Positions 974 through 21,201 of a stretch of DNA of 21,201 bases are shown piece by piece. The position numbers were made by a program, and so were the translations under genes. The notes below the pieces were generated by a model. That model saw nothing but the letters and a program-made list of their open reading frames with translations, made no database searches and was not told where the DNA came from. Every line of letters begins with the position of its first letter. The stretch's first letter is position 1. The DNA is from a virus, in the IMG/VR virus record IMGVR_UViG_3300020191_000088, positions 1-21,201 of that record. One strand, written 5' to 3'.

Positions 974-975
974 AA

Positions 976-1464
976 ATGGCTTTTCTCGACCAAACTTTCA
1001 GCGTAGACACATTGCCCAAGGGCAACAGCTACGATCCACTTCCCGCCGGCTGGTACTCAGCCGTCATTGCCACCGCAGAGGTCAAAAAAACTTCTGCCGG
1101 CACGGGCAGCTATATCGGCGTGCGTTACAACATCACCGGGCCAACTCACCAGGGTCGGGCAGTGTTTGGCAACTTGAACATTAAAAACCCCAACCCCAAG
1201 GCGGAGGAAATTGGCAGGCAGCAGCTTGGCGAAATTATGCGTGCCATCGGTCTGAACCAAGTGACCGACACTGATCAGTTGATTGGTGGCCGGCTGGAAA
1301 TCAAACTGACCATCCGCAAGGATGAGCAGTATGGTGATGGCAACGACGTAAAGGGCTTTAAGTCACTGAACGGCGCGGCCATGCCCTCGGCCATGTCACA
1401 AACAGCGCCAGCAGCTACCAACACTGCACCTCCCAAGGCTGCACCACCCTGGGCGCGGAAATGA
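976..1464 (+). CDS. DUF669 family protein, probable single-stranded DNA-binding protein
   Basis: This 162-residue protein has the usual DUF669 layout. A conserved start (MAFLDQTFSVDTLP) leads into PLPAGWYSAVIATAEVKKT and then the beta strand SYIGVRYNITGP. An NP-rich loop follows (FGNLNIKNPNPKAEEIG), with a helix LGEIMRAIGL and a strand ending in IRKDEQYGDGNDVKGFKS. The tail is a flexible A/P-rich linker ending PPWARK, like the short conserved tip of many phage single-strand-binding proteins. Proteins of this family next to Sak4-like recombinases are thought to coat single-stranded DNA and help the recombinase. A Shine-Dalgarno AAGGAA lies just before the start, and only two bases separate it from the previous stop. 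The family call is strong; the DNA-binding role is family knowledge. Confidence 0.85.
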   Translation: MAFLDQTFSVDTLPKGNSYDPLPAGWYSAVIATAEVKKTSAGTGSYIGVRYNITGPTHQGRAVFGNLNIKNPNPKAEEIGRQQLGEIMRAIGLNQVTDTDQLIGGRLEIKLTIRKDEQYGDGNDVKGFKSLNGAAMPSAMSQTAPAATNTAPPKAAPPWARK

Positions 1465-1766
1465 GCAGCTACGCCGAAATTGAGATGAAGATTCTCCAGT
1501 GGGCAGAGGCCAGGAAGATCATTCCTAACTCAACCCCTGCAATTCAGCTTTTGAAAGCAATGAGCGAGATGGGAGAACTGGCCGACGCTACCATCAAAAA
1601 TGATTTGGAAGGAATTAAAGATGGCGTTGGCGATGTCATGGTTTGCTTGATCAATTATTGCGCCCTGCAAGACATCAATCTAATTGTGTGCATGTACTCG
1701 GCATTCCGTCAGATTCAAGACCGCAAAGGCACCTTACTAACCAACGGTGTTTTTGTCAAAGAGTAA
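1461..1766 (+). CDS. MazG-like nucleoside triphosphate pyrophosphohydrolase
   Basis: A 101-residue all-helical protein. The metal-binding motif of the MazG/all-alpha NTP pyrophosphatase superfamily is visible: an E-x-x-E pair at residues 36-39 (SEMGELAD), then an acidic pair at 54 and 58 (KDGVGDVMVCL), spaced as in the family. Such enzymes hydrolyse NTPs or dNTPs to the monophosphate and pyrophosphate. Phage copies may clear unusual nucleotides or lower (p)ppGpp signalling; which one applies here cannot be read from the sequence. The start overlaps the DUF669 stop (ATGA at 1461-1464), so translation is probably coupled. The length fits the single-domain phage form. The acidic residue before the last metal ligand is Asp rather than the commoner Glu. 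Confidence 0.8.
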   Translation: MSSYAEIEMKILQWAEARKIIPNSTPAIQLLKAMSEMGELADATIKNDLEGIKDGVGDVMVCLINYCALQDINLIVCMYSAFRQIQDRKGTLLTNGVFVKE

Positions 1767-1819
1767 TCAACCAGGGGGAAAGCGCAGGCAAGTACCCCAA
1801 TTTTTCAGAAGACAAGAAA

Positions 1820-2851
1820 ATGCAAATACCTGAACCCACAGAGCCAGTCGTAACCATTGAATCTTTGATCGATGAGGCCCATGAGAAGCGCCAGGAGCGC
1901 CCCCGGCAACACTTGGGCTGCTCTACCCTTGGCCACCCCTGTGATCGCTGGCTGTGGCTGTCATTTCGGTGGGCCGTCGTGGAAAAATTCCAGGGTCGTA
2001 TCCTGCGTTTGTTCCGCCGTGGCCAAAACGAAGAGGCCACCATTGTGTCTGACCTGCGCGACATTGGCATCGATATCCGAGCCACCACCGGGTCGCAAAG
2101 TCGGGTGGACTTTGGTAGCCATGTGAGCGGCAGCCTGGACGGCATTATTCACTCTGGTGTGCCGGGTGCCAGGAAAACCAAGCACATTGCCGAATTCAAA
2201 ACTCACGCCAAAAAGTCATTTGATGGCGTGGTCAAGGACGGCGTGGAAAAGTCTAAATTTATGCACTTCATTCAGATGCAGGTTTACATGCTGGGTGCCA
2301 AAATTGATCGGGCGTTGTATTTGGCAATCTGCAAAGATGATGACCGAATCTACACCGAGCGCGTCAAACTGGACAAGGAAGTGGCTCAGAAATTTGTGGA
2401 TCGTGGCCACCGAATAGCGTTGTCGGATCGTATGCCCGAGCCTATGAGTACTGACCCGACTTGGTTCGAATGCAAGTACTGTCCAGGCCACGATTTTTGT
2501 TTTGGCAGCAAGACCACCAAGCAAGTAACTTGTCGCACTTGTGCAAACGCCACGCCGCTGTCGGATAGCACTTGGCATTGTGTGCGTTGGGATGACATCA
2601 TTCCTGGCGATGCCCAGCATATTGGCTGCGAGTCACATATCTTGCACCCTGATCTGGTGCCGTGGCAGATTGTTGATAGTCCTCGGGATTGGGTTGCCAA
2701 GTACCGCATTGGCAAAAAAGAAGTCCTGAATGGTTTGCCGGCGGCAGATGTATTTGGTTCCAAAGAATTGCTGGCCAACACCGCGGCTTGCGTAGACGCC
2801 GACCCGTTTTTGATGGATTTGCGGAAGGAATGGGATGGCAGGGTATGCTGA
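1820..2851 (+). CDS. PD-(D/E)XK nuclease, Cas4/RecB-like with probable Fe-S cluster
   Basis: A 343-residue protein. I chose the ATG at 1820 because it follows a purine-rich AGAAGA site and lies after the MazG stop; the longer in-frame extension overlaps that gene. RecB-family signs are clear: LGCSTLGHPCDRWLW near the N-terminus, GQNEE at 68-72, catalytic D107 in GSLDG, E125-x-K127 in AEFKTH, and Q152-x-x-x-Y156. One N-terminal cysteine (C34 or C41) plus C218-x2-C221-x5-C227 matches the four-cysteine Fe-S arrangement of Cas4 and AddB. A second cysteine set follows (C238, C241, C254, C270) and could bind zinc. Enzymes of this class act as single-strand exonucleases; next to a helicase and Sak4 ATPase it probably resects DNA ends. 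The last bases overlap the helicase start. Confidence 0.88.
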   Translation: MQIPEPTEPVVTIESLIDEAHEKRQERPRQHLGCSTLGHPCDRWLWLSFRWAVVEKFQGRILRLFRRGQNEEATIVSDLRDIGIDIRATTGSQSRVDFGSHVSGSLDGIIHSGVPGARKTKHIAEFKTHAKKSFDGVVKDGVEKSKFMHFIQMQVYMLGAKIDRALYLAICKDDDRIYTERVKLDKEVAQKFVDRGHRIALSDRMPEPMSTDPTWFECKYCPGHDFCFGSKTTKQVTCRTCANATPLSDSTWHCVRWDDIIPGDAQHIGCESHILHPDLVPWQIVDSPRDWVAKYRIGKKEVLNGLPAADVFGSKELLANTAACVDADPFLMDLRKEWDGRVC

Positions 2852-4428
2852 GAGATTACCAGCAAACCACCATCGACCAGCTTTACCAATGGTTTGAGGC
2901 AGGCAACAAGGGCAACCCTTGCCTGGTGTTACCCACCGGGTCAGGCAAGTCTCACATCATTGCCGCACTGTGCAAAGATGCGCTGCAGTCTTGGCCTGAA
3001 ACACGCATTCTGATGCTGACCCATGTCAAAGAACTGATTGTGCAAAACGCCGACAAAATGCGCCAGCACTGGCCAGGAGCGCCAATGGGGATCTACAGCG
3101 CCAGCCTGAAGCGCCGCGACCTGGGGGAGCCGATTACTTTTGCTGGCATTCAATCGATCAGCAAGAAAGCCGATCAAATTGGCCATGTCGATCTGATCAT
3201 CATTGATGAGGCTCATCTGGTGAGCCACAAAGATGAAGGTGGTTATCGCGACTTGCTGACCGAACTGAGCAAAATCAATCCATCCTTGAGGGTGATTGGT
3301 CTGACCGCCACGCCTTACCGCCTGGGGCATGGCCTGATCACTGATAAGCCGGCCATCTTTGATGAGTTGATTGAATCAGTCAGTATTGAGCAATTAATTT
3401 ACAAAGGATTTTTATCAACGCTGCGTTCAAAGGTAACCAAATCTAAGCTGGATATATCACAAGTCAAAAAGCGTGGTGGCGAGTACATTGAGGCGGAATT
3501 GCAGGCTGCAGTCGATACCAATGAGCAGAATGAATCGGTGGTGCGCGAAGTTATAAACCTTGCTGGAGAAAGAAAAGCATGGTTATTTTTCTGCACTGGT
3601 GTTAATCATGCTCACCATATTGCCCAAGTATTGCGAGACAACGGCATAGCCGCTGATTGCGTGACTGGCGACACGCCGCATAAAGAGCGCCAGCAAATGT
3701 TGGAGGATTTCAAAAATGGGAAATTAAGGGCGCTGACAAATGCCAACGTATTGACAACGGGATTTGACTATCCAGACATCGACCTAATTGCCATGTTGCG
3801 GCCTACCATGAGTCCTGGCTTGTACGTCCAAATGGCCGGCAGGGGGTTGCGACCCAAGTCCCACACCGATCATTGTTTGGTGCTGGACTTTGCTGGCGTG
3901 GTGCAGACGCATGGGCCGATCACCAACGTGCAGACGCCCAAGAAAGCCGGCGAAGGTACTGGGGAAGCACCAGTCAAAGTCTGTGATAACTGCGGCGAAT
4001 TGTGTGCCATTTCAGTGGCCGTATGCCCCGCCTGTGGCACTGCTTTCCCCGTCAAAGATCCGCCTGTGCTGGCGCTAAGACACGATGACATCATGGGCCT
4101 GGAAGGCACCGATCTTATAGTGAGCAGTTGGGAATGGAGAGTCCACGAAAGCCGCGCCAGTGGCAAGGAAATGCTGGCCGTGACCTATTACGGGGCGTTG
4201 AGTGACATGCCAATCACTGAGTACCTGACGGTCTTGCACGACGGGTATGCCGCAGAAAAAGCCATGCGATTGCTCTTGACGATGTCCAAGAATGGTGGAG
4301 CCTCGCTGGTAAATATTGTGGGGTTGGAAAATATTACCCAGGCCATGAACAATGCCCAGCCACCAGCTTTGATTGAGTTCAAAAAAGACGGCAAATTTTA
4401 CCGTGTGTTGCAAAGGAGTTGGAAATGA
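2845..4428 (+). CDS. DEAH-box superfamily 2 helicase
   Basis: A 527-residue SF2 helicase. Motifs appear in order: Q-motif Q6 in LRDYQQ, Walker A PTGSGKS at 30-36, Ia-like MLTHVKEL, DEAH at 121-124, motif III LTATP at 153-157, motif V TTGFDYPDI and motif VI QMAGRGLRP starting at 329. After the second RecA-like domain comes a zinc ribbon with cysteines 380, 383, 394 and 397, then a C-terminal domain of about 120 residues. It resembles UvrB/RecQ-like and type I restriction-type phage helicases often called DEAD/DEAH box helicase, which probably unwind branched DNA in replication or recombination. The ATG at 2845 overlaps the nuclease stop by seven bases. An in-frame ATG at 2830 is the alternative, but the GGAAGGA abuts it too closely to serve it. 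Confidence 0.92.
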   Translation: MLRDYQQTTIDQLYQWFEAGNKGNPCLVLPTGSGKSHIIAALCKDALQSWPETRILMLTHVKELIVQNADKMRQHWPGAPMGIYSASLKRRDLGEPITFAGIQSISKKADQIGHVDLIIIDEAHLVSHKDEGGYRDLLTELSKINPSLRVIGLTATPYRLGHGLITDKPAIFDELIESVSIEQLIYKGFLSTLRSKVTKSKLDISQVKKRGGEYIEAELQAAVDTNEQNESVVREVINLAGERKAWLFFCTGVNHAHHIAQVLRDNGIAADCVTGDTPHKERQQMLEDFKNGKLRALTNANVLTTGFDYPDIDLIAMLRPTMSPGLYVQMAGRGLRPKSHTDHCLVLDFAGVVQTHGPITNVQTPKKAGEGTGEAPVKVCDNCGELCAISVAVCPACGTAFPVKDPPVLALRHDDIMGLEGTDLIVSSWEWRVHESRASGKEMLAVTYYGALSDMPITEYLTVLHDGYAAEKAMRLLLTMSKNGGASLVNIVGLENITQAMNNAQPPALIEFKKDGKFYRVLQRSWK

Positions 4429-6977: not shown

Positions 6978-7140
6978 CTTCGCAGCCTGGGAGCGTCAGA
7001 CGCTGGACAGGTTCGCCTCGGACGCTTACATCCGCCTTCAGCAGCAGCAAGAGGCGCTTGAGCAGCTACGTCAAGACCTAAGAGATGCTATGAACTTACT
7101 TAGGACAAAAACAACGCACGTTCGTCTTGACGGCGTTTGA
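6961..7140 (+). CDS. Small coiled-coil protein with TTG start, last gene of the plus-strand operon
   Basis: A 59-residue product read from the TTG at 6961. An AAGGA at 6950-6954, six bases upstream, supports this unusual start, as no ATG lies near. The sequence MNDLPNFAAWERQTLDRFAS, then YIRLQQQQEALEQLRQDLRD, is a typical small phage protein: a short N-terminal motif L-P-N-F-A-x-W-E and a long coiled-coil helix. It ends TKTTHVRLDGV. It begins inside the preceding gene and its last 41 bases overlap the end of the convergent lysozyme gene. Function unknown. Confidence 0.65.
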   Translation: MNDLPNFAAWERQTLDRFASDAYIRLQQQQEALEQLRQDLRDAMNLLRTKTTHVRLDGV

Positions 7141-7576
7141 CTAATCCTGGCAGAACCTTACCACCGCCCCTGGTGAACTTTAGGAACTCATCTGCCGCCG
7201 CTTCAATCTCACCCCGCAGAACCTTCTGACGGAGGGTGCTTCGCTGTACGCCGCCCAAACCGAGATTAAAAGCAAAGCTGCACAAAGCATCGTTTTGACC
7301 TTGGGTAAGTACCATAGGAAAAAGTTTGGCGATGCCAGCTTCAAATCGGATGAGATCAGCACTAAGGAGTCCATTTACTTCGGCTCCGGGAAACGTACGT
7401 TGATCTTTTGCTTGAAGCGGGTAAGCATCTCTTTGATCCAGTGGTAAACGACCTTGATCTGGGTATAAAACATGACCAACTCCTACAGTCCAAAGTTTTG
7501 CAGGGCAACGGTACGGCTTGTATCTAACACCTTCATGGTGCTTGATCATCTCTTTGCACCAAGCAGAGACTTTCAT
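7100..7576 (-). CDS. Endolysin, GH24 phage lysozyme
   Basis: A 158-residue T4-type lysozyme that cuts the N-acetylmuramic acid to N-acetylglucosamine bond of peptidoglycan. The catalytic triad motif is visible as E15-x8-C24-x5-T30 (HHEGVRYKPYRCPAKLWTVG). The middle residue is Cys where T4 lysozyme has Asp; phage members with Cys here are known and active. The second family block SFAFNLGLGGVQRSTL and the end GGGKVLPGLVKRRQDERALF are typical. I chose the ATG at 7576, which overlaps the holin stop (ATGA); the in-frame TTG at 7606 lies inside the holin gene. There is no N-terminal signal or SAR segment, so release depends on a holin. It is the last gene of the late operon. Confidence 0.92.
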   Translation of the reverse strand: MKVSAWCKEMIKHHEGVRYKPYRCPAKLWTVGVGHVLYPDQGRLPLDQRDAYPLQAKDQRTFPGAEVNGLLSADLIRFEAGIAKLFPMVLTQGQNDALCSFAFNLGLGGVQRSTLRQKVLRGEIEAAADEFLKFTRGGGKVLPGLVKRRQDERALFLS

Positions 7577-8058
7577 TTTTTGCTGAAAGCCTGACTTCCG
7601 AACCAAAAGCTAATGACGCTTGCCCAAATGATCTGAGTCTCATCGTCCCAAATATTATTCAACATGACTTGAAAGTCAACGCCGTGCTGCCACGCATAAA
7701 CAAACCCAGCAACGTCAACAAACACTAGCAGCAAGAACAACCCGTATGTGATGATTGGCCTGACCCCCGCACGGAGATTAACCATCCACTGCGATGCACC
7801 TTGACCAATAGCAATGTCATGGGCGTATAGGGCGCTGCGTTCTGCTGATGCCGCCTCTATCATCTGGCCCTCAACCCTGATCTCCTCCACCCTTTGCTGG
7901 GCTTCAAAACCAGCTTTGCGGAGTTCTAGTTCACGCTCAGTCTGGAGTCGAGCCATTGCCATTTCGTGGCTCTTATCGGCACGGTCTTGGAAAAACCCCA
8001 ACAGCTTGGGCAAGCCCCCCGCCAAGAAACTAACCAATGTAGTAATTAAAGTGATCAT
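7573..8058 (-). CDS. Holin, GTA_holin_3TM-like
   Basis: A 161-residue membrane protein. A first hydrophobic helix covers about residues 1-23 (ITLITTLVSFLAGGLPKLLG). A charged helical stretch rich in Glu, Arg and Gln runs from 25 to 75. A second hydrophobic helix spans about 100-122 (VRPIITYGLFLLLVF) and a third about 141-156, ending FWFGSQAFSKK. R-P-x-I-T-Y and F-W-F-G-S-x-x-F are familiar from the three-transmembrane holin family first noted in gene transfer agents. It would form the membrane hole that lets lysozyme out. It sits directly upstream of the lysozyme with an ATGA overlap, which supports the role. The long charged helix between the first two hydrophobic segments is part of the family. 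Confidence 0.8.
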   Translation of the reverse strand: MITLITTLVSFLAGGLPKLLGFFQDRADKSHEMAMARLQTERELELRKAGFEAQQRVEEIRVEGQMIEAASAERSALYAHDIAIGQGASQWMVNLRAGVRPIITYGLFLLLVFVDVAGFVYAWQHGVDFQVMLNNIWDDETQIIWASVISFWFGSQAFSKK

Positions 8059-8279
8059 TTTGGTTCTTCTTCATCATGTGATAGTTTGACGCCAGCAAGC
8101 AACCCAATAAACCCGCCGACAATGGTCTGAAACGCTGGGCTAATCAATTTGAATATTTCCGAGTTGTCCACTTTTTCATCAAACAGCCCAATCATCAGCA
8201 CGCCGACCATGCCAATCACAACAATGCACAAGGTCACACTGACCATCAGCGTCACGCAAAAGGTAAGTTTGGCTTTCAT
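8055..8279 (-). CDS. Two-pass membrane protein, possible second holin or antiholin
   Basis: A 74-residue protein. The ATG at 8279 overlaps the upstream stop, so I rejected the longer reading from 8327. The first hydrophobic segment, about 5-32, includes CVTLMVSVTLCIVVIGMVG. The second, about 52-66, is FQTIVGGFIGLLAG. Between them lies a short charged loop DEKVDNSEIFK, and the C-terminus is acidic (SHDEEEPK). Its size, two membrane segments and place between the coiled-coil membrane gene and the three-pass holin suggest a lysis role, such as a class II holin or a regulator of the neighbouring holin. No family motif confirms this. Confidence 0.72.
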   Translation of the reverse strand: MKAKLTFCVTLMVSVTLCIVVIGMVGVLMIGLFDEKVDNSEIFKLISPAFQTIVGGFIGLLAGVKLSHDEEEPK

Positions 8280-8530
8280 TTTCTCCAGAATTGAACAAAT
8301 GAAAACACTATCGCCGCCGCCGCCCATATGCCGACGCCACGGTTAACCCACTGATCGACTTTGCGGTCAGTACGATGCAGCATAGACTCATGGACGCTGA
8401 GTTGCGTTTCAAAAGCAACAATCTTTGCGCCCTGGTTAGCCTGCCGTTCCTCAAACAGGATCAGCTTGCCAACAGCGTCCGTCAGCTTGTCAACTTTGCT
8501 TTCCAATCGCCTAAAATCATCGTCAGTCAT
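8276..8530 (-). CDS. Coiled-coil protein with C-terminal membrane anchor, XhlA-like
   Basis: An 84-residue protein. The first 60 residues form heptad-like repeats (DFRRLESKVDKLTDAVGKLI, then ERQANQGAKIVAFETQLSVH), and KVDQWVNRGVG leads into a single C-terminal hydrophobic helix WAAAAIVFSFVQF with the end RK. This layout, a cytoplasmic coiled coil anchored at the C-terminus, resembles the haemolysin XhlA type and phage lysis-cassette proteins that share V-D-Q-W-V-N-R-G. It probably helps assemble the lysis machinery at the membrane. There is a 13-base gap to the collar fibre gene upstream. Confidence 0.75.
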   Translation of the reverse strand: MTDDDFRRLESKVDKLTDAVGKLILFEERQANQGAKIVAFETQLSVHESMLHRTDRKVDQWVNRGVGIWAAAAIVFSFVQFWRK

Positions 8531-12464: not shown

Positions 12465-12917
12465 TTAGATCACCCAAAAATCTTCTAATTTCTTAAAACC
12501 AAACTTGTCATATTTCAAGTCTGGGCTGTTCACCATCTTACTGATGAAGAAAGCCGAGATGCGTTTCTGCGATTTAAGCGCATTTCCATGTTCGACGTAA
12601 GCTGCTATCAACCTGTGCGCTGCAGAGCCGCCACGGGCCTCTACGTTGATCCAAAAGGCCATCTCCATCATTACCAAATGCTTGGGACTCCAGGCACTTG
12701 GCGAAATAGCCGCCAACAGCATCCCGTCAATTTTATCTGTCTCCGCGACCAGAGCAATCCCGCGACCCGCCATTATTTCAGTCAGCACCTGGGTGATGTA
12801 AATTTCGTCATCCACCTCCTGCAAAAATTCCAGCGGTGCAAATGCGCGGTACTGCCGCAGCATCCCCAGAATTGCCGGGATGTCAAACGGGTTGGCATCT
12901 CGAATTGTGGGCCTCAT
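12465..12917 (-). CDS. GNAT family N-acetyltransferase
   Basis: A 150-residue GNAT-fold protein. The N-terminal strand and helix are seen in TIRDANPFDIPAILGMLRQY. A central strand pair follows (GIALVAETDKIDGMLLAAIS), then MMEMAFWINVEARGGSAAHRL. The A-R-G-G-S-A-A-H-R-L stretch fits the acetyl-CoA pyrophosphate-binding loop, with the first position of the usual Q/R-x-x-G-x-G/A replaced. The C-terminus has SPDLKYDKFGFKKLEDFW, typical of GNAT ends. It would move an acetyl group from acetyl-CoA to an amine. The substrate is unknown: a tail protein and a host protein are both possible. GNAT genes inside tail operons, just before the hub gene, occur in several phages. It overlaps the upstream gene by four bases (ATGA). 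Confidence 0.85.
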   Translation of the reverse strand: MRPTIRDANPFDIPAILGMLRQYRAFAPLEFLQEVDDEIYITQVLTEIMAGRGIALVAETDKIDGMLLAAISPSAWSPKHLVMMEMAFWINVEARGGSAAHRLIAAYVEHGNALKSQKRISAFFISKMVNSPDLKYDKFGFKKLEDFWVI

Positions 12918-13594
12918 GCTGCCGTCTTGCCAAATGTGTAATTGATGGTTGAGATGAAATTCACCCGGTTCATCGACGTATCACCGGAATTGAACGATTG
13001 CCAGGATGCATCGTTGGTGTACCGTCCTGCTGTGCGATTCTGAAGGATAAGCTGGAAGCTGGATGCGCTTATGGTAATGACACCTGTAAACGCGCGAACT
13101 TCTTCCATCCATTCTTCTGAGATTGAGAACGAATTTACATAGCCATTGAAGTATTTGTACAACCCTGAAATGCCAGCATCTACTGTCCAATCCGTCAACA
13201 CAGACGAACTGTTTGTCCAGCCAATAACGGCGGATGCGTTGTTTGTCCATGCGACTGGGGTGGTGGTAATTAACTCATTGTTGGCATTAAAGAATCCATG
13301 CCACAGTTCAATCTGCGAACCTTTGATTTTCTCAGCCAGCACAATAGCCAGCATTGAGGTGTCAATCCCCACCAGGGTGACGGTGGTTTCGTTAGCTGTG
13401 CTTTTGATGTCGCGTTGCGCGGCGTTGACTTTTATTAACTGCCCAAGAGCCGAGAATGGCGAGGCAGAAATAGAAGGCACAACGATTGCATAAGGCGCTG
13501 TAGAGAATAGATATGTCCCGGTTGGCGTTGTGAGCCGAAAGAAATCCGCATACCGAATTATGTTGGTATTTTGAACTGCAGGGATCTGATTCAC
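12914..13594 (-). CDS. Distal/minor tail protein
   Basis: A 226-residue protein starting at GTG 13594, which overlaps the upstream stop (GTGA) and has a perfect GGAGGT at 13601-13606 six bases away. The longer reading from TTG 13630 was rejected for this reason. It opens NIIRYADFFRLTTPTGTYLF and then has GQLIKVNAAQRDIKSTANET, TVTLVGIDTSMLAIVLAEKI, IELWHGFFN, KYFNGYVNSFSISEEWMEE and ISASSFQLILQNRTAGRYTN with DTSMNRVNFI. It is largely beta-strand. The style (V-T-L-x-G-I-D, W-H-G-F-F, Q-N-R-x-A-G-R) matches tail proteins placed between the tape measure and the hub in siphoviruses, functionally like minor tail protein L. The exact part of the tail tip is inference. Confidence 0.75.
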   Translation of the reverse strand: MNQIPAVQNTNIIRYADFFRLTTPTGTYLFSTAPYAIVVPSISASPFSALGQLIKVNAAQRDIKSTANETTVTLVGIDTSMLAIVLAEKIKGSQIELWHGFFNANNELITTTPVAWTNNASAVIGWTNSSSVLTDWTVDAGISGLYKYFNGYVNSFSISEEWMEEVRAFTGVITISASSFQLILQNRTAGRYTNDASWQSFNSGDTSMNRVNFISTINYTFGKTAA

Positions 13595-14271
13595 AAAACA
13601 ACCTCCATTGCGCTGAATGCATTTGACCAAGCAATGAAGCTGTCGTTGGTCATTGGCACAAGCGTGTAGGTTGGATAATCGCGCACAATGACCGGGAAGG
13701 TTATGCCGGTGTACGTTGAGCCGCCCAGGGCCACGGTGGTGCCGTATTGCCCGATGACAGCCAGCATCCCGATTGTTGGCGCATCAATCAATGATCGATG
13801 CACAGGCACGTTGACCGTCGAGCCGCCGCCGCGAGTGACGTTGGCTGTTGCAATGTACGCATACCGACCAACCTGGATAAAGTCGCCAGCCTTGACGATA
13901 AATAGGGTGGAGGTGATTGACGGGAGCGTACCCAGCACAATGGTCTTGCCAGAAGATGCAGCTTGCACCGTGACTGCGGCAGCTTGCACTGCGCTCATGT
14001 CGCCTTGGTAGGCGATGTAGTTGACCCAGCCTGTAGAGGCGTAGTTCAGGTATTGCTCTGCCACCCGGTCAGCCACGCGCAGCGCAGACAGCACGGCACG
14101 GTTCTGCGAGTACAGCAGATAGTCATTTGGCTTTATCGTGAACTGAAATGGCTGAACCGTCAATATCTCTGATGTGCTGATCCGCATGTTGCGCGAAAGC
14201 ATTTGCCCTGCAAACTTGTGGTCGTTGATGGCTACGGTTTCAGCAATTGACAGGATGGTTTGCAGGCTCAT
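13591..14271 (-). CDS. Putative distal tail protein
   Basis: A 226-residue protein. It begins MSLQTILSIAETVAINDHKF followed by AGQMLSRNMRISTSEILT and QPFQFTIKPNDYLLYSQNR. A helix LRVADRVAEQYLNYA comes next, then alternating beta segments, including TLFIVKAGDFIQVGRYAY and VRDYPTYTLVPMTND, and the end WSNAFSAMEVVL. The N-terminal half reads like the strand-rich distal tail proteins that ring the tube end, and F-x-x-G-D-F-I-Q is a frequent phage tail motif. It shares length with its downstream neighbour but not sequence. The ATG overlaps the 50-residue gene stop by one base (TAATG). Family assignment is by position and pattern only. Confidence 0.72.
   Translation of the reverse strand: MSLQTILSIAETVAINDHKFAGQMLSRNMRISTSEILTVQPFQFTIKPNDYLLYSQNRAVLSALRVADRVAEQYLNYASTGWVNYIAYQGDMSAVQAAAVTVQAASSGKTIVLGTLPSITSTLFIVKAGDFIQVGRYAYIATANVTRGGGSTVNVPVHRSLIDAPTIGMLAVIGQYGTTVALGGSTYTGITFPVIVRDYPTYTLVPMTNDSFIAWSNAFSAMEVVL
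13601..13606 (-). promoter_or_regulatory. Shine-Dalgarno GGAGGT deciding a GTG start
   Basis: On the minus strand GGAGGT lies six bases before GTG 13594. It is the strongest ribosome site seen in this window and fixes a non-ATG start. Confidence 0.8.
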
Positions 14272-14423
14272 TATTTTTCTTTCCGGTTGAAGAGTTCAAA
14301 CAGAGTCTTGATCTTCTCTTCCAAAACTGCAACACGCAAGTCTAACTTTGCCAAAACGATAATCAAAGTGATCAACGCCAGCAGTATCGGCCATGCTTTG
14401 GACAGGACTTCAAATAAGTCCAT
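14271..14423 (-). CDS. 50-residue single-pass membrane protein
   Basis: A short ORF that fills the gap between two tail genes: the ATG at 14423 is one base after the upstream stop, and its TAA overlaps the next ATG by one base. The product starts MDLFEVLSKAWPILLALITL, a hydrophobic helix that continues IIVLAK, followed by an amphipathic coiled-coil-like end LRVAVLEEKIKTLFELFNRK. An N-terminal membrane helix with a charged helical tail mirrors, in reverse order, the XhlA-like protein of the lysis cassette. Its tight fit supports it as a true gene. Role unknown; it could assist tail entry or lysis. Confidence 0.65.
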   Translation of the reverse strand: MDLFEVLSKAWPILLALITLIIVLAKLDLRVAVLEEKIKTLFELFNRKEK

Positions 14424-14424
14424 A

Positions 14425-14685
14425 TCAGTATCCCGACTTAGCCCTAGCCTCTACCTCATAGGGGCTGTTGATGTAGCCGTAGCGCAGCAAGTACCAGAAA
14501 ATCTTCACCGTCCACCGAAAAGCCCCGTCCCGCTCAATCTGTGACACATGCACCGCCTCGTGAGCGGCGAGGGCGTAGTTGTCCTCCTGTCCGGGTCGGC
14601 AGTAGACGGTCTTCCACGGCATGGTGATTGCCAGCGAGTTGCTGGCTTTCAAGAACCACAGAACGGGGAACGGGGCGGTTTTCAT
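14425..14685 (-). CDS. Small HEXXH protein, putative zinc metallopeptidase
   Basis: An 86-residue protein. H42-E-A-V-H46 in LAAHEAVHVSQIERDG matches the HEXXH zinc site, with Q49 placed as in H-E-x-x-H-x-x-Q. Downstream, INSPYEVEARA has E77 and E79, either able to act as the third zinc ligand, and the helix WTVKIFWYLLRYGY lies between. The N-terminus is short (FPVLWFLKASNSLAI) with no signal peptide. Small proteins of this plan occur in phages and bacteria, in my memory, with no proved substrate. Possible roles are cutting a virion protein or the cell wall, or binding zinc without catalysis. The ATG overlaps the upstream stop (ATGA). Confidence 0.75.
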   Translation of the reverse strand: MKTAPFPVLWFLKASNSLAITMPWKTVYCRPGQEDNYALAAHEAVHVSQIERDGAFRWTVKIFWYLLRYGYINSPYEVEARAKSGY

Positions 14686-14909
14686 ACGGCTTCGGCTTCT
14701 ACCTTTTCAGGGGTTATCAGCGCCTCTTTGAGCAGCTTTAGGAACGAGTCCTTGCCGACTTGGAGTTGCTGAAGCTGAAACTGGGTCGAGCCAATCTTGC
14801 GATCCAAGTCGATGGTGTGGTTCAACAGCAAGATTTGCTGTTCCGTAAAAGTGTTGGCGTCATGCTCAACACCGTCTATCGTGACGATCTGGGGCTTTTT
14901 GTTTTCCAT
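14682..14909 (-). CDS. Small phage protein, coiled coil (DUF6447-like)
   Basis: A 75-residue protein. I chose the ATG at 14909, since AAAGGA at 14916-14921 is six bases before it; the in-frame ATG at 14924 overlaps that ribosome site. It opens with a charged part and the short beta element QIVTIDGVEHDANTFTEQQI, then a long helix LLLNHTIDLDRKIGSTQFQL ending LLKEALITPEKVEAEAV. The I-D-G-x-E-x start and following glutamine-rich helix resemble a small family found in the tail regions of other phages (DUF6447, from memory and not certain). Function unknown. Confidence 0.7.
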   Translation of the reverse strand: MENKKPQIVTIDGVEHDANTFTEQQILLLNHTIDLDRKIGSTQFQLQQLQVGKDSFLKLLKEALITPEKVEAEAV

Positions 14910-14915
14910 TTCGTG

Positions 14916-14921
14916 TCCTTT
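14916..14921 (-). promoter_or_regulatory. Shine-Dalgarno AAAGGA deciding the start at 14909
   Basis: On the minus strand AAAGGA lies six bases before ATG 14909 and follows a strong stem-loop. It shows that the upstream in-frame ATG at 14924 is unlikely to be used. Confidence 0.7.
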
Positions 14922-14927
14922 CAATGT

Positions 14928-14949
14928 GCTGCCAAGGGCGGGTGGCAGC
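14928..14949 (-). promoter_or_regulatory. Intercistronic stem-loop in the late operon
   Basis: A perfect seven-base inverted repeat (GCTGCCA and TGGCAGC) with an eight-base loop lies in the 46-base gap between the stop at 14956 and the start at 14909. G-T pairs could extend the stem by two. No T-run follows on the minus strand, so it is not a classic rho-independent terminator. It may stabilise the mRNA 3' end, tune the next gene or act as a partial terminator. Confidence 0.55.
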
Positions 14950-14955
14950 GTCCCG

Positions 14956-15270
14956 TTATGCGGCCCAAGGCAGGGGTGTGTTGGCGGGGCTGACAGGTGG
15001 GGTAATCATTGAGTCAATCTGGCCCTGTACGCAAGCCTGTGCGCTGGTGATGGCAGACTCAGGAATCCAGCCGATGACCACTGCCTCAGTCAGTTGGTCG
15101 TAGGGAATGAACACAGCGCCCTGCTGGGAGTCAAACTGCGTGTTGCCGCCGATACTGGCGGTGTTGGAGCCGTCTACACCTGTGACTTGCCACAAAGCGT
15201 TGACCACATAGTTTGGGTCAGGCTGTTGCAGGGTGTACATAGCGGTGATGGTTGTGGTGAAGGTTGTCAT
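14956..15270 (-). CDS. Conserved phage protein, DUF7936-like
   Basis: A 104-residue protein. It opens with a strand (TTFTTTITAMYTLQQPDPNY) followed by VVNALWQVTGVDGSNTASIG and GNTQFDSQQGAVFIPYDQLT, then EAVVIGWIPESAITSAQACV and a proline-rich end TPLPWAA. The blocks A-L-W-x-V-T-G-V-D-G and F-I-P-Y-D-Q-L-T-E-A-x-V-x-G-W-I recall a small family seen beside fibre genes of phages including cyanophages (DUF7936, from memory). It may be a fibre-associated or tail-assembly protein. The ATG overlaps the S74 fibre stop (ATGA at 15267-15270), pointing to coupled translation with the fibre. Confidence 0.72.
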   Translation of the reverse strand: MTTFTTTITAMYTLQQPDPNYVVNALWQVTGVDGSNTASIGGNTQFDSQQGAVFIPYDQLTEAVVIGWIPESAITSAQACVQGQIDSMITPPVSPANTPLPWAA

Positions 15271-18200
15271 GGTTTGCTTTCAAGTTGTGCGACACGGGCG
15301 CGGAGGGATTGGAGTTCAGCAACAAGGTCGGCAATGACCTCAGAGGTGCTTGCTTGCATGGACTGGTACACGGGCTTGCCTTCAGCGTCCACAGCGTCTT
15401 TATCGCCTGATACGCTGCTTGGGTAGACCTCTTGGAATTGATGCGCCAAGAAACCGCGAGTACGTTCGCCGCCAGCGTTCCATGTGTACTCAACAGGCTG
15501 CAAGGCATCAATGCGTTGGCCTGCATCAGCCACGGGGCCAACTACTGTTTTAAGGCGGTAGTCGGAGGTTACGTTGTACAGAACGCCTGTTGTGCCTGAT
15601 TGTGTAATTGAGCCGATTTGACTGCTGTTGTAGTTAAATTCATGGTATGTGTCGCCCGTAGTGTTGCCAATTACATGACCAATTATCAGACGCTGAACAG
15701 AGCTTGATCCGGGGCTTATGAATGCAAAACCAGTTGCGCCGCTTGTGCTTGTAGTCCCCACCAGCAAGTTACCGCTGCCATCGAACACACCCCGTGGATT
15801 CCCATCCCCATCAGACAGCACGATGTAGTTGCTTGCTGTGCGAATGTCTAGGCCACCTTGGTTGCCTGAGAAGCCGCCGATGATGGTATTCTTGGAGCCT
15901 GTTGTTATGGCAGAACCAGCGCCTTGGCCTAAAGCGGCATTAAATCCACCTGTGGTTACACTAGCAAGTGCTTGATAACCTATGGCAGTGTGGTAACCAC
16001 CCGTTGTGTTTGAGTAAAGGGCTTGGTATCCCAATGACACAGTTTGTGGCCCTGTTGTATTACTATACCCCGCCTGATAACCCACAGCGGTGTTGTTGGA
16101 GGCTGTGGTGTTGGAGTAGAGGGCGCTATAGCCAAAAGCTGTATTACTCGCCCCCGTATTATTGGAGTACAGCGCCGACAAACCCATTGCCGTAGAACCA
16201 ACGCCCGTTGTGTTGGAGTACATTGCCAACCGACCAACAGCAGTTACATCACCAGTTGTATTCGTATACCCAGCTTGGAAACCTACAGCGGTGTTGTTTG
16301 AAGCGGTGGTGTTGTTGCCAAGTGCTGCTTTGCCAACAGCGGTATTTTGTACTCCCGTGGTGTTGTAGTACATTGCTTCTGAGCCAAAAGCACTGTTGTA
16401 ATACCCCGTTGTGTTGGCGTAAAACGCATACGACCCAGCAGAGGTATTTTGTCCAGTTCCAGTTGTAGTGCTGTACCCCGCCAGATACCCTAATGCTACG
16501 TTACCTGCACCTGTAGTATTACTATACCCCGCCTGATAACCTACTGCGGTATTGTTAGATGCTGTGGTGTTGGAGCCAAGTGCTCCCACGCCTAATGCTG
16601 AGTTGAAAGAGCCTGTTGTGTTGCTTCTTAATGCCGCAGAAGTTGTGGCATCTGCACTACCAACCGCCACGTTGCTTGTACCCGTAGTGTTAGCGTTAAG
16701 AGCGTTATAACCAACTCCAGTGTTGTAGGCCGCAGTATTGTTTTGTAGAACAAGACTACCAATAGCCGTTACCGCATTACTTGTTGAATTTGAATATCCA
16801 GCCAAATTACCTAAAGAAGTGTTTAGAGTACCAGTAGTATTACTATACCCCGCCTGATAACCTACAGCGGTGTTGTAAGAGGCTGTGGTGTTGGATTGAA
16901 GTGCTGATACTCCAACAGCAGTATTAGATGCACCAGAAGTATTTAGTGCGAGAGCATAAAAACCTAAACCAGTGTTAAAACTTGCCGTAGTGTTAGCCAA
17001 CGCAACACGACCAATTGCGGTGTTTTGAGTTCCTGTTGAATTTAACAACAATGCACTATCACCCAAGGCTGTGTTATCTGTGCCAGTTGTATTAGCCGCC
17101 AAAGCACTAGCACCCACCGCAGTATTAGATGCCACAGCACCAGCACCACGGCCCACGGTCAAGCCTTGGATGGTTGCGCCAAGGGTGCTACTCAGCGCCC
17201 CGGTGACTGCTAGTCCGGTGGAGGAGAATGTGCCGATGGTGGCTATGGAACCGCTTACTAAAACTCTTGCCTCTAGTGTTCCGTTTTGGCTGGTTTGTGC
17301 AAGCGCACGAATTGCCCCAAGTGAATTATTTGTTGATGTTGAATCCAGCCCAAAAAACCCTAACTGTGGGCCGGTAACACCCGCACTAAATGCTCTAGTG
17401 TCTTTGCTGATTATTGGATATGTTCCATCACCAGTCGATGCTGTAAGTTGCGCTGAAATAGTAGTTGCCCCACTTGCACTCAGCGTCCCGGTGACTGCTA
17501 GGCCGGTGGTGGTGAGATTCATGTAAGTCGTACCAACCGAGCTATCTCTAAAGCTCAATCCCCCAGCAGTACCTAAAGGCGAACTCGTCGCATTTGAGGC
17601 TATTGTCCAAACCTTACCACCGGCTGATGTTGCCTGTAGCTGAACTGCGGCATATAGTAGACCGCCTGATTCTGTTGCTATAAGTTGTGGGGATACACCT
17701 CCCGTCGCACTAATCGCCCCGGTGACTGCTAGGCCGGTGGAGTTGAGAAGAGTGACAGTGCTATTGTTTACTCTGCTGTATATGCTACCGCCAGTAGGGA
17801 CGCCGATTATCATATCTGGACTACCTGCACCTCCCCAGATACCAGTTAACGTAGTTGCTGCAAACGCTCCATTAAATGATAGCAATCCATACGTTGGGTC
17901 GGTACTTACCTGACCAAGACTTATGGCGGAAGTCTGCCCCGACATAGTTACGCCTGACCGCCCCGTAGCACTCAGCGTCCCGGTGACTGCTAGGCCGGTG
18001 GAGGAGACTGTGCCAACTATTGCGCTATTTGAAACAAGATAGAACGGGGTGTTTGTAAATGACCCAATAAACGACGAATACGCCGCCGACCCCGCCAACG
18101 CTTCAGCCCCCACACTACTGTCAATCCCAAACCTTAAATCGCCGCCAGTGTTAAAAATTCTTTCGCGGTTAAATCCGGTGGTAGTACCCGTTGCAGATAA

Positions 18201-18539
18201 AAATGTAGTGTTTGTTGCAGCCGTTCCCGTAGCACTCAGCGTAGTAAAAGCCCCCGTCGTAGGCGTTGTAGCCCCGACAGTGCCGTTCAGTGCGCCAGCA
18301 AATTTTGTGCTTGATAGGGTTGTGCCATCAAAGGTCAGCACAGCCCCGCTGGTCAGCACCTTGCTGGCGTTGAGGTATGGAACTCCGTTGGCTGTGCCTG
18401 TGGTCAGCGTGATGCTGCCTGCAAACGTGACTGCCGAGCCACTCAGCGAAAATCCTGCGTCATAGTACGCAAAGTTTGCGTCTAGGTTGGCAAGAGGAAT
18501 GGAACTGGTTGCGCTTGCGAATGTATTTGGGACTGCCAT
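15267..18539 (-). CDS. Tail fibre with YadA-head-like repeats and self-cleaving S74 chaperone domain
   Basis: A 1090-residue fibre. The N-terminus (1-45) attaches to the virion: NTFASATSSIPLANLDANFA. Residues 100-455 carry four copies of a T-G-L-A-V-T-G block followed by [ST]-A-[ST]-G-like ends. Residues 472-890 hold about 24 repeats of 17 residues with the consensus N-T-A-x-G-x-x-A-x-x-x-N-T-T, like the YadA head or Hep_Hag left-handed beta-roll. The C-terminus is a Peptidase S74 intramolecular chaperone: S992-D-Y-R-L-K997 has the Ser and Lys five apart used for self-cleavage in endosialidase fibres, and RGFLAHQFQEVYPSSVSG and a helical end follow. S74 domains drive trimer assembly and then cut themselves off, so the mature fibre would end near 991. 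The gene follows the tape measure by nine bases. Confidence 0.9.
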   Translation of the reverse strand: MAVPNTFASATSSIPLANLDANFAYYDAGFSLSGSAVTFAGSITLTTGTANGVPYLNASKVLTSGAVLTFDGTTLSSTKFAGALNGTVGATTPTTGAFTTLSATGTAATNTTFLSATGTTTGFNRERIFNTGGDLRFGIDSSVGAEALAGSAAYSSFIGSFTNTPFYLVSNSAIVGTVSSTGLAVTGTLSATGRSGVTMSGQTSAISLGQVSTDPTYGLLSFNGAFAATTLTGIWGGAGSPDMIIGVPTGGSIYSRVNNSTVTLLNSTGLAVTGAISATGGVSPQLIATESGGLLYAAVQLQATSAGGKVWTIASNATSSPLGTAGGLSFRDSSVGTTYMNLTTTGLAVTGTLSASGATTISAQLTASTGDGTYPIISKDTRAFSAGVTGPQLGFFGLDSTSTNNSLGAIRALAQTSQNGTLEARVLVSGSIATIGTFSSTGLAVTGALSSTLGATIQGLTVGRGAGAVASNTAVGASALAANTTGTDNTALGDSALLLNSTGTQNTAIGRVALANTTASFNTGLGFYALALNTSGASNTAVGVSALQSNTTASYNTAVGYQAGYSNTTGTLNTSLGNLAGYSNSTSNAVTAIGSLVLQNNTAAYNTGVGYNALNANTTGTSNVAVGSADATTSAALRSNTTGSFNSALGVGALGSNTTASNNTAVGYQAGYSNTTGAGNVALGYLAGYSTTTGTGQNTSAGSYAFYANTTGYYNSAFGSEAMYYNTTGVQNTAVGKAALGNNTTASNNTAVGFQAGYTNTTGDVTAVGRLAMYSNTTGVGSTAMGLSALYSNNTGASNTAFGYSALYSNTTASNNTAVGYQAGYSNTTGPQTVSLGYQALYSNTTGGYHTAIGYQALASVTTGGFNAALGQGAGSAITTGSKNTIIGGFSGNQGGLDIRTASNYIVLSDGDGNPRGVFDGSGNLLVGTTSTSGATGFAFISPGSSSVQRLIIGHVIGNTTGDTYHEFNYNSSQIGSITQSGTTGVLYNVTSDYRLKTVVGPVADAGQRIDALQPVEYTWNAGGERTRGFLAHQFQEVYPSSVSGDKDAVDAEGKPVYQSMQASTSEVIADLVAELQSLRARVAQLESKP
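15870..17126 (-). repeat. Tandem 51-bp repeats encoding 17-residue fibre units
   Basis: About 24 imperfect 51-base units, plus a partial one, encode N-T-A-x-G units of the S74 fibre. Three copies share an identical 26-base stretch starting at 16057, 16516 and 16837. The first two are 459 bases apart, exactly nine units; the second and third differ by 321 because one unit is longer. Such repeats let the fibre change length by recombination. Confidence 0.85.
17201..18000 (-). repeat. Four dispersed direct repeats encoding TGLAVTG
   Basis: A 20-base sequence, cggtgactgctaggccggtg on the plus strand, occurs at 17489-17508, 17720-17739 and 17981-18000. A copy with one mismatch is at 17201-17220. 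They encode the T-G-L-A-V-T-G blocks of the fibre and are about 240-290 bases apart, separated by unlike sequence, as expected for shuffled shaft modules. Confidence 0.85.
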
Positions 18540-18548
18540 TGTGATTCC

Positions 18549-20978
18549 TTAACGTGACATTGGGATACTACGATTGGCCGACTGATACACAGACCAGACG
18601 GACTGCTTGTTCTTGGCCAGGAACTGAAGACCCGACTGCGTATCAATTGCGCTCATGCTGGCAATGTACGGGCCATTGTAATTGATTGTTGGCGCTTGCT
18701 GGCTACTGCCCAGCATGTGATTTGGCACGATTGTGCCAGCCGTCTTGGGAACAAACAACTCCGGGCCACGCTCACCAACCATCGAAGGCACGCCAACCGG
18801 CGGGTCGCCGCCATCGGCAAAGCCAAAGATTTTGCCGACCATCCCCATGAAGCCTTTTCCACCGCTGGCCATTTCCCACAGCGCCAGGGCTTGCTTCTTC
18901 AATTCAATTTTCAGCAAGTCTTTCAGAATGCTTTCCGTTAGTTTGCTAAATGATGTTGTGCCATTTTGCACCATTTCATCAATAGCGGAAGTCATGTTGT
19001 TCCAGACAGCATCGTTTATCGATTGCAAATATTTTAATTGATCGGTTAACTGAATATTCAATATTCCGTCTTTCTTTTTGGCTTCAGCCATTGCGTTTAG
19101 AGCCGCCAAAGCTTCTGCGTTGTCTCCATATTGCTTTTGATTATTTAAAATATCTTCTTGATATTTTGCTTCCAACTCTGCCAATTTAACCTGGCGTTCA
19201 CTCCAACCAACCATTTTAATTTGGGCTTCAAGCTTGTCTTTGGATTCTAAATTAGATGTGTGAGATTTTTGATAATATTCAACATCATCCATTAACCTTT
19301 TTAATTTGTCTTCTGCTTCTTGATCGGCAATTTTTTTGCGAGCATCGCGTTCTGCTTCTGCAGCATCAATTTCTAGATTTAATCTTTTTTGCCTAAAATC
19401 TTCTAATTTTTTCTCATATTGCTGAACTTCTAAAGCCAATTCCTCCATATAAATTTTTCGTCGCAAAACAAGATAATTTTTATCTTTTCCTTCTATATCT
19501 CTATGATATTGAACCAACAAAGCGCGACCGCGCTCATAAGATTCAATTTGAATTTTATTTTCTTCATCAGCATTTGATTTTCTATCGTCATAGTCCAAAG
19601 CATCAACAGCATCTTGAAATCTTTGTCTAAGACTTAATTCATGTTGATAGCCGCCATCGCCAGCATAAACATTTATTTTTTTCTTTTCACCTTCTATTTT
19701 TTTGGCGTCTGCATTGGCTTTAACTAAAATTGCAATTAATTTAGCTTTTTGATCTTCCAGACGATTTAATTCATCAGCATATGCTTTGACATTTTCATCT
19801 TTATCACCAAGAAGTGGCCGTGGTTTTGGCGCACCTCGCTCTACCATTGCATTGATACGTTCTTGAATGGTTCTAATTTGATCGGGAACAGAATCTGGTT
19901 TGCCAAAATTCATGGCTGCATCCCAGAATTCACTCCATTTCTTTTTGGTAAAGTCTAATGCTTGATCTAAATAACCCAGTTCTGTTTTTGTCTTGTCAAA
20001 ACTAGCGCGCATTAAATCAGAAGTCAATATAATTGACTCTTGCATTTTGTTTTGTCGCTCTAATGTTTCAATTTGTTTGTATTGAGCCAACGTCAAAAAG
20101 TTGTATTGATCGTTTAGTTTTTTGGCGCTGGCTGCTGAACCATCCAGTGTTGGAATAAGCTTTGCTGCAGCTTCTTTGGATGTCAGGCTACTCAATTCCG
20201 AAAATCTTTGAATAGTCTTTGACACCGAATCAAAGGTTTGATTGGTGAATTGGCCAGAGCCAATCATGGCATTCAAAATATCTTTGGCACCGCCAATGCT
20301 TGCGCGGGAGGTGCTGCTGATGGTTTCAGCCATCACCTTAAAGCTGTCTGTCGTGACGCCAGAATACTGGCCAGTCAGGATCAATGAGTTGTTGAGCGCA
20401 TCAAACTCTTTTCGACCCATGACGGCTGCAGTCGCCGCCAAACCAAGGGTTGCGGCAAATGCCACCAAAGCGCCCATTGGAGACACAATCAACGGCGTCA
20501 GTACCCGGAACATATTGCCCAGGCCACCCATTTGATCCTTCAACTGGCCACCCTGCTGAATGGCGGCGATCATGATGCTTTGGCCAGAAGCAACCTGCGT
20601 GAAGAAGTCAGTGGTCTGGTACATCAGACCTTGTTTTTGCCATGCTGTGAGGCCACCAGCGGCCTTCAGAGAACTTGCAGCAATTCGGTCATAGGCAGCG
20701 GCCTGGGCCAGCAGTTGCATTTTGAGATCATCTGACGCCAGCCTAAATTTTCCTGTGCTGATTTCTCGCTCAATGATTTGAACCTTGGTTAAGGTTTTGC
20801 CGTAATCATCCGTAGCATTTTTTAGCGAAACAATTTCGCCGGCTGCGGCATTGCTTTCGCGTTTGATAGCCTGGCCAAGTTTGCGGTTTTCACTGATTGC
20901 CTTGTCAATCGACGCCGTAAATTCTGCCGTGTCCAACCCCAGGACTACACCCAGCCGAGCGATATTATTGGATGCCAT
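18549..20978 (-). CDS. Tape measure protein, lambda gpH-like
   Basis: An 809-residue protein that sets tail length and is ejected with the DNA. The N-terminal TMP_2-like region includes RLGVVLGLDTAEF, GLMYQTTDFFTQVASGQSIM and IAAIQQGGQLKDQMGGLG, with a hydrophobic segment at about 158-187 (LTPLIVSPMGALVAFAATLG). Residues 300-650 are long charged helices rich in Lys, Glu and Asp, probably coiled coil. The C-terminus (about 655-760) fits the lambda tail tape measure family: NNMTSAIDEMVQNGTTSFSK, then LKDLLKIELKKQALALW and GFADGGDPPVGVPSMVGERG with PELFVPKTAGTIVPN. The central part of the gene is far richer in A/T than its ends, suggesting an exchanged segment. The ATG overlaps the gp10-like stop (TAATG). 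Confidence 0.93.
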   Translation of the reverse strand: MASNNIARLGVVLGLDTAEFTASIDKAISENRKLGQAIKRESNAAAGEIVSLKNATDDYGKTLTKVQIIEREISTGKFRLASDDLKMQLLAQAAAYDRIAASSLKAAGGLTAWQKQGLMYQTTDFFTQVASGQSIMIAAIQQGGQLKDQMGGLGNMFRVLTPLIVSPMGALVAFAATLGLAATAAVMGRKEFDALNNSLILTGQYSGVTTDSFKVMAETISSTSRASIGGAKDILNAMIGSGQFTNQTFDSVSKTIQRFSELSSLTSKEAAAKLIPTLDGSAASAKKLNDQYNFLTLAQYKQIETLERQNKMQESIILTSDLMRASFDKTKTELGYLDQALDFTKKKWSEFWDAAMNFGKPDSVPDQIRTIQERINAMVERGAPKPRPLLGDKDENVKAYADELNRLEDQKAKLIAILVKANADAKKIEGEKKKINVYAGDGGYQHELSLRQRFQDAVDALDYDDRKSNADEENKIQIESYERGRALLVQYHRDIEGKDKNYLVLRRKIYMEELALEVQQYEKKLEDFRQKRLNLEIDAAEAERDARKKIADQEAEDKLKRLMDDVEYYQKSHTSNLESKDKLEAQIKMVGWSERQVKLAELEAKYQEDILNNQKQYGDNAEALAALNAMAEAKKKDGILNIQLTDQLKYLQSINDAVWNNMTSAIDEMVQNGTTSFSKLTESILKDLLKIELKKQALALWEMASGGKGFMGMVGKIFGFADGGDPPVGVPSMVGERGPELFVPKTAGTIVPNHMLGSSQQAPTINYNGPYIASMSAIDTQSGLQFLAKNKQSVWSVYQSANRSIPMSR

Positions 20979-21201
20979 TATTTCTTCCTTCGTTTGGACA
21001 GTGTCAGCGCGTAAGCTGGAATAATCTCTGCCAGTTTTCCTTTCAACACGCCAAGGACTGTTTCGGCATTGCTGTCAAGCGCCGGGCGCAAGAATGGGCG
21101 TGCAGACATTTTACTGGTTCCAAATTCATTTGCCAGAGATACCGCGCTTCGCTTGACAGAAACAACGGCAATTACTGCGTCAGTTGGGTTGACGTAACCA
21201 G
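20978..21201 (-). CDS. HK97 gp10-like connector/tail completion protein (5' end outside window)
   Basis: Only the last 74 residues lie in the window. They read GYVNPTDAVIAVVSVKRSAV, then SLANEFGTSKMSARPFLRPA and LDSNAETVLGVLKGKLAEII, ending in a basic tail LSKRRKK. The E-F-G-T-x-x-x-x-A-R-P-F-L-R-P-A block is the hallmark of the HK97 gp10-like family, which completes the head-tail junction or the tail tube end. The stop overlaps the tape measure ATG by one base. Finding it directly before the tape measure is unusual, because a major tail protein and assembly chaperones normally lie between. Confidence 0.85.
   Translation of the reverse strand, partial: GYVNPTDAVIAVVSVKRSAVSLANEFGTSKMSARPFLRPALDSNAETVLGVLKGKLAEIIPAYALTLSKRRKK

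What the first reader, a model, noticed from the sequence alone, without database searches (positions are those of the whole stretch)
14425..14685. Small HEXXH protein inside the tail operon
H42-E-A-V-H46-x-x-Q and a downstream E-V-E-A form a near-complete zinc-peptidase site in only 86 residues. It sits where many siphoviruses carry a cell-wall peptidase, but is a different fold type. It could be a virion metalloprotease, an assembly protease or a non-catalytic zinc protein.
Basis: partly seen in the sequence, partly recalled or inferred. Interest (0 to 1): 0.6.

Follow-up and report, generated by a model that had tools for sequence, protein, structure and literature searches.

The report
Tiny phage zinc peptidase near lysis genes
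This phage gene makes a very small protein with a complete, invariant zinc-peptidase signature, shared with dozens of other phages and a few bacteria; in many of them it sits just before the genes that burst the host cell, so it is probably a small enzyme that helps with lysis rather than a part of the tail.

Summary
The ORF is real and lies on the minus strand (14425-14685, 86 aa). In 34 homologues, including a T4-like cyanophage and Burkholderia, Cupriavidus and Deinococcus proteins, H42, E43, H46, Q49, G54, G70, Y71, E77 and A80 are invariant. E79 is not, so E77 is the likely third zinc ligand (HExxH-x30-E). Close pairs have dN/dS of about 0.08-0.15.

AlphaFold gives a confident compact fold (pLDDT 96). 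The HExxH helix follows a beta strand and E77 starts the last helix. Fold searches hit a phage protein named DUF4157-domain (TM 0.80). For a divergent homologue the top solved structures are gluzincins, selecase first, but with non-significant E-values. The peptidase reading is supported. The 'tail-operon cell-wall-peptidase position' reading is not: cultured phage P19250A has the same core (tape measure, three genes, J) without this gene. In the window it belongs to an inserted five-gene fibre-to-membrane-protein cassette.

Among 39 context clusters, 19 have a holin or endolysin (GH24, GH19, GH108 or M15) within 2.5 kb downstream, against 0 of 38 upstream. Best explanation: an accessory late lysis zinc peptidase. 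The substrate is unknown and nothing has been assayed. The family is catalogued (PHROG 37302) but uncharacterised.

The parts
14425..14685 (-). 86-aa HExxH...E minimal gluzincin-like protein (H42, E43, H46, Q49; probable third ligand E77)
14551..14565 (-). codons of H42-E43-A-V-H46, the zinc-binding and catalytic motif on the active-site helix (residues 37-53 of the model)
   Evidence: invariant
14446..14457 (-). codons of E77-V-E79-A80; E77 invariant (probable third zinc ligand), E79 replaced by D or A in bacterial relatives
14682..14924 (-). 80-aa upstream partner (phrog_21153, unknown); its stop overlaps the HExxH start (ATGA); directly upstream in many relatives
14956..15270 (-). DUF7936 small protein (PF25590), recurrent upstream neighbour next to the fibre gene
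15267..18539 (-). 1090-aa repetitive fibre or spike protein with C-terminal Peptidase_S74 (self-cleaving chaperone); first gene of the inserted cassette
14271..14423 (-). 50-aa single-TM plus coiled-coil protein (TM50), ATG 1 nt after the HExxH stop; in relatives it lies next to holin genes
12465..14271 (-). p226-p238-p150 tail genes leading to J; collinear with P19250A_0016-0018, which lack the HExxH cassette
7100..8530 (-). the window's own lysis block: small TM proteins (84 and 90 aa), holin-like 161 aa (phrog_6637), GH24-type endolysin 168 aa; about 5.9-7.3 kb downstream in the same direction

Best explanation
A late-expressed, free-standing minimal gluzincin: one domain in which a short sheet, the HExxH helix and a C-terminal helix carrying E77 would hold one zinc ion (ligands H42, H46, E77) with E43 as general base. 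It is carried as an accessory gene at the junction between tail-fibre and lysis genes, usually as the first gene of the lysis cassette. The likely role is to help destroy the host envelope: made in the cytoplasm without a signal peptide, it would reach the periplasm when the holin opens the inner membrane and there cleave a peptide bond in peptidoglycan cross-links or in an envelope protein, alongside the phage's ordinary endolysin. Shown: gene, conservation of the site, predicted fold, neighbourhood. Inferred: zinc binding, catalysis, release through the holin, and the substrate.
For: Invariant H42/E43/H46/Q49/E77 over 34 homologues down to about 22% identity. dN/dS 0.08-0.15. AF2 pLDDT 96 with HExxH in helix 37-53 after strand 27-29 and E77 in helix 75-84; a divergent homologue adds a third strand, matching the zincin core described in PMC5512222. 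Fold hits: a phage protein named DUF4157 domain-containing (TM 0.80, E 6e-7) and a SprT-like phage protein (TM 0.56, E 0.4); the top six PDB hits for the divergent homologue are all HExxH zinc peptidases (selecase, anthrax lethal factor). Context: 19 of 39 clusters have a holin or endolysin on the same strand within 2.5 kb downstream, 0 of 38 upstream, and 4 more have a convergent M15 endolysin. Four unrelated endolysin types are involved. Precedent: VgrG2b C-terminal domain, a DUF4157-annotated gluzincin, causes blebbing and lysis in the periplasm, and E936A abolishes this (PMC6899460).
Against: In the window and its closest relatives (L001, L005, L008) the gene is about 6-7 kb from the lysis block, in a fibre cassette. 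About half of the context clusters show no lysis gene nearby: some sit next to terminase or portal genes (L054, L058, L060, L061), one in a cyanophage accessory region, and some in bacteria with no phage context. PDB fold hits are not statistically significant. No zinc-site distances were available. The census used lysis proteins taken from the same loci and a capped set of near relatives. Adjacency may reflect a shared accessory-gene slot rather than shared function.
Confidence: 0.45

Rival explanations
1. An assembly or virion protease: it processes the large S74 fibre or another tail protein, or is carried in the tail tip to open the cell wall at entry.
For: In the window it sits in a fibre cassette, 0.6 kb from the fibre gene and inside the tail operon. 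Fibre and DUF7936/p80 genes are frequent upstream neighbours.
Against: The tail core TMP-p226-p238-p150-J is collinear in P19250A without it. The S74 domain already has its own self-cleavage. Fibres upstream differ while the gene is kept. It also occurs beside terminase or portal genes and in bacteria.
Confidence: 0.2
2. An intracellular regulatory or anti-host protease (for example against a host repressor, stress or defence protein) carried as an accessory gene in a variable slot.
For: Very varied contexts, including a T4-like cyanophage accessory region, the end of early-type operons in L069-L072 and chromid or plasmid copies. There is no signal peptide. Zincin peptidases are common in phage conflict proteins (PMC5512222).
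Against: Strong one-sided association with lysis genes in about half of the contexts; late-operon position in the window.
Confidence: 0.22
3. A non-catalytic zinc-binding protein, structural or a chaperone or adaptor.
For: Very small. For DUF4157 domains a chaperone role has been proposed, and one eCIS toxin (Cgo1) acts independently of its metalloprotease motif (PMC11297309).
Against: E43, which is not a zinc ligand in gluzincins, is invariant in all members, as are the HExxH histidines and E77.
Confidence: 0.12

Closest known systems
PHROG 37302 (phage family, function unknown)
   Same: Window protein matches 80 of 98 positions at E=1e-19, and 33 of 34 members of A5 match: membership.
   Different: No function given there; no lysis link recorded.
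DUF4157 / eCIS_core (PF13699), including VgrG2b C-terminal domain
   Same: HExxHxxQ after a hydrophobic strand; 17 of 34 members give weak matches, best E=1e-4; nearest BFVD fold hit is named DUF4157 domain-containing. VgrG2bC-ter also is a gluzincin with the third Glu downstream.
   Different: Window protein scores 15.4 bits against a cut-off of 22 and aligns to only 22 of 79 positions; no eCIS or T6SS context; VgrG2bC-ter not retrieved by fold search.
Minigluzincins, selecase (PDB 4qhi)
   Same: Single-domain gluzincin of about 110 aa; top PDB hit of the divergent homologue.
   Different: E=0.33, TM 0.37: not significant; no sequence similarity detected; the window protein is shorter (86 aa).
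Tail-associated cell-wall peptidases of siphoviruses (lambda gpK type, NlpC/P60, JAMM)
   Same: Lies in the same late transcript; peptidase.
   Different: Different signature and fold; not at that locus; dispensable relative to P19250A.

Membership tests
PHROG 37302 | Profile match over most of the family model | tested here: met
   E=1.1e-19, residues 3-82, model 15-94 of 98
Gluzincin (clan MA(E)) | HExxH with both His and catalytic Glu conserved | tested here: met
   Invariant in 34 of 34
Gluzincin (clan MA(E)) | Downstream Glu as third ligand, in a helix after the active-site helix | tested here: met
   E77 invariant, at the start of helix 75-84; role as ligand inferred
Gluzincin (clan MA(E)) | Zincin fold similar to solved gluzincins | tested here: inconclusive
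   Topology agrees and zincins rank first for a homologue, but E >= 0.33; none for the window model
Gluzincin (clan MA(E)) | Binds zinc and hydrolyses peptides | not testable with these tools
   Needs protein
DUF4157 / eCIS_core PF13699 | Score above the Pfam gathering cut-off over the domain | tested here: not met
   15.4 bits against 22, model 55-76 of 79 only
DUF4157 / eCIS_core PF13699 | Genetic link to eCIS or T6SS loci | tested here: not met
   Neighbours are tail-fibre, lysis, head and packaging genes
Minigluzincin/selecase | Sequence or significant structural similarity | tested here: inconclusive
   Top fold hit 4qhi but E=0.33; no sequence hit
Phage lysis module gene | Recurrent position in lysis cassettes | tested here: met
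   19 of 39 clusters downstream, 0 of 38 upstream; not in the window itself
Phage lysis module gene | Loss or inactivation changes lysis | not testable with these tools
   No cultured phage experiment available
NlpC/P60 or JAMM tail cell-wall peptidase | Family profile match and position just before J | tested here: not met
   No such Pfam match; slot before J is p150

The most novel reading that the evidence does not exclude
A widespread third type of lysis enzyme: a holin-released mini-gluzincin that cleaves an envelope protein or peptidoglycan peptide, acting beside glycosidase or M15 endolysins and perhaps in place of spanins.
Probability: 0.2. Interest if true: 0.65.

Novelty: new member of a known kind. 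Interest (0 to 1): 0.4.

Why it matters
If active, it would be among the smallest zinc peptidases known (86 aa) and useful as a minimal scaffold. The repeated placement ahead of unrelated holin-endolysin pairs makes a testable prediction that some phages add a protease to lysis, and would give a function to a family now labelled unknown.

Tried and rejected
PDB sequence searches with the single protein and two profiles gave only chance hits. The PDB fold search with the window model gave no zincin. NCBIfam gave nothing. The genome-contig scan returned one hit, a frame without the HExxH motif (L036), rejected as spurious; bacterial relatives were found instead in plasmid records. Zinc-site distances could not be computed because model coordinates are not exposed. 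Considered and rejected: chance motif (invariance, dN/dS); a product of the overlapping plus-strand ORFs 14260-14544 and 14548-14772 (the minus-strand frame is the conserved, coupled one); the gene as an obligatory tail gene (absent from P19250A). Literature searches found no paper on this family or on a gluzincin in a lysis cassette, within an open-licence library only.

Full report
OBSERVATION. The ORF is on the minus strand, 14425-14685, and encodes MKTAPFPVLWFLKASNSLAITMPWKTVYCRPGQEDNYALAAHEAVHVSQIERDGAFRWTVKIFWYLLRYGYINSPYEVEARAKSGY. The motif is as described. By shuffling, an HExxH is expected about 0.05 times in the window's proteins and HExxH plus E..A about 0.01 times. The start overlaps the stop of the 80-aa gene (ATGA) and the following 50-aa gene starts 1 nt after the stop, so the three look translationally coupled.

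CONSERVATION. Viral contigs hold many relatives: 35 loci with the single sequence; with profiles, 271-306 candidate stretches encode a relative, of which 79-80 were kept. In 35 phage proteins W24, L39, H42, E43, H46, Q49, G54, G70, Y71, P75, E77, E79 and A80 are invariant. Adding Pseudoalteromonas phage J2-1, cyanophage-like C48C1 and Cupriavidus, Burkholderia and Deinococcus proteins leaves H42, E43, H46, Q49, G54, G70, Y71, E77 and A80 invariant. E79 becomes D or A. This points to E77 as third ligand and to catalysis (E43) rather than a structural zinc site. dN/dS is 0.08-0.15 against close relatives.

FOLD. AlphaFold2 from the 35-row alignment gives pLDDT 96 and pTM 0.83: helix 6-14, strands 19-21 and 27-29, HExxH helix 37-53, helix 55-69, helix 75-84 with E77. 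A divergent homologue (L058) adds a third strand before the N-terminal helix. This agrees with the zincin core described for phage polyvalent proteins: three-stranded sheet, N-terminal helix, HExxH helix and a later helix with the glutamate (PMC5512222). In BFVD the best hit is a phage protein named DUF4157 domain-containing (TM 0.80, 37% identity, E 6e-7), with a SprT-like phage protein further down at E 0.4. In the PDB nothing is significant: none for the window model; for L058 the first six hits are all HExxH zinc peptidases, selecase first, with E from 0.33.

FAMILIES. PHROG 37302 (unknown) at E=1e-19 is a clear match. Pfam gives only eCIS_core/DUF4157 below cut-off for the window protein (15.4 against 22 bits, 22 columns), so it is not filed as a DUF4157 member. 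DUF4157 is an HExxH domain whose role is still debated (PMC8213781; PMC11297309). VgrG2b C-terminal domain, which belongs to a family largely annotated DUF4157, is a gluzincin that kills from the periplasm in a catalytic-residue-dependent way (PMC6899460).

NEIGHBOURHOOD. In the window the order on the minus strand is tape measure (18549-20978), S74 fibre, DUF7936, p80, HExxH, TM50, p226, p238, p150, J, collar, small TM proteins, holin-like, GH24 endolysin. Methylophilaceae phage P19250A, the nearest annotated phage by J (52% identity over 97%), has tape measure - P16 - P17 - P18 - J with 66%, 53%, 27% and 52% identity to p226, p238, p150 and J, and no fibre/DUF7936/p80/HExxH/TM50 block in between. 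The HExxH gene is therefore not part of the tail core; it lies in an inserted cassette. The slot just before J, where a cell-wall peptidase is usual in many siphoviruses (general knowledge), is p150, which resembles an acetyltransferase (phrog_1249).

In relatives the same cassette usually runs straight into a lysis cassette: TM50, a 74-aa TM protein, p151, one of several holin-like proteins, then an endolysin of type M15, GH24, GH108 or GH19. Collapsing 84 loci to 41 context clusters, 19 of 39 with enough sequence have a holin-like or endolysin gene on the same strand within 2.5 kb downstream, 0 of 38 upstream, and 4 more end against a convergent M15 endolysin. About half of the clusters show no lysis gene nearby; some lie beside terminase or portal genes (L054, L058, L060, L061).

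MECHANISM. Most likely a late, accessory minimal gluzincin that joins the lysis step after the holin opens the membrane. The enzyme class is likely (about 0.85), the lysis association moderately likely (about 0.6), and the route and substrate are inference (about 0.3). The main rivals are a virion or assembly protease and an intracellular anti-host protease.

VERDICT. Observation confirmed, interpretation partly supported. The family is already catalogued without function and the fold class is known. What is new here is the completeness and invariance of the site, the assignment of E77, and the lysis-side placement. No experimental evidence was found.

Noticed in passing
window 12465-12917 (-): A 150-aa protein resembling an acetyltransferase (phrog_1249, E=2e-11) occupies the slot between tail gene p238 and J where a cell-wall peptidase is usual; weak homologue in P19250A (27%).
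   Followed up: partly
window 13591-21000 (-): Compared with P19250A a five-gene block (fibre, DUF7936, p80, HExxH, TM50) is inserted between tape measure and p226, suggesting a mobile fibre-plus-accessory module.
   Followed up: yes
window 15267-18539 (-): 1090-aa fibre with many degenerate 'NTAVGYQAGYSNTTG'-like repeats and a C-terminal S74 self-cleaving domain.
   Followed up: no
window 7573-8058 (-); L007, L027, L089: phrog_6637 (unknown function) sits directly before GH24 endolysins and looks like a holin; a candidate for annotation.
   Followed up: partly
L003:8189-8641, L007, L012, L041 and others: p151, a 151-aa protein with an N-terminal TM and a periplasmic-looking domain, without Pfam or PHROG match, recurs between the HExxH gene and the holin.
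   Followed up: partly
L091, L092, L093, L094: Distant HExxHxxQ...E relatives on replicons of Cupriavidus, Burkholderia and Deinococcus, some with a longer N-terminal region, all of unknown function.
   Followed up: partly
window 21-4428 (+): Divergent early operon with Sak4-like annealing protein, SSB-like protein and a DEAD-type helicase.
   Followed up: no
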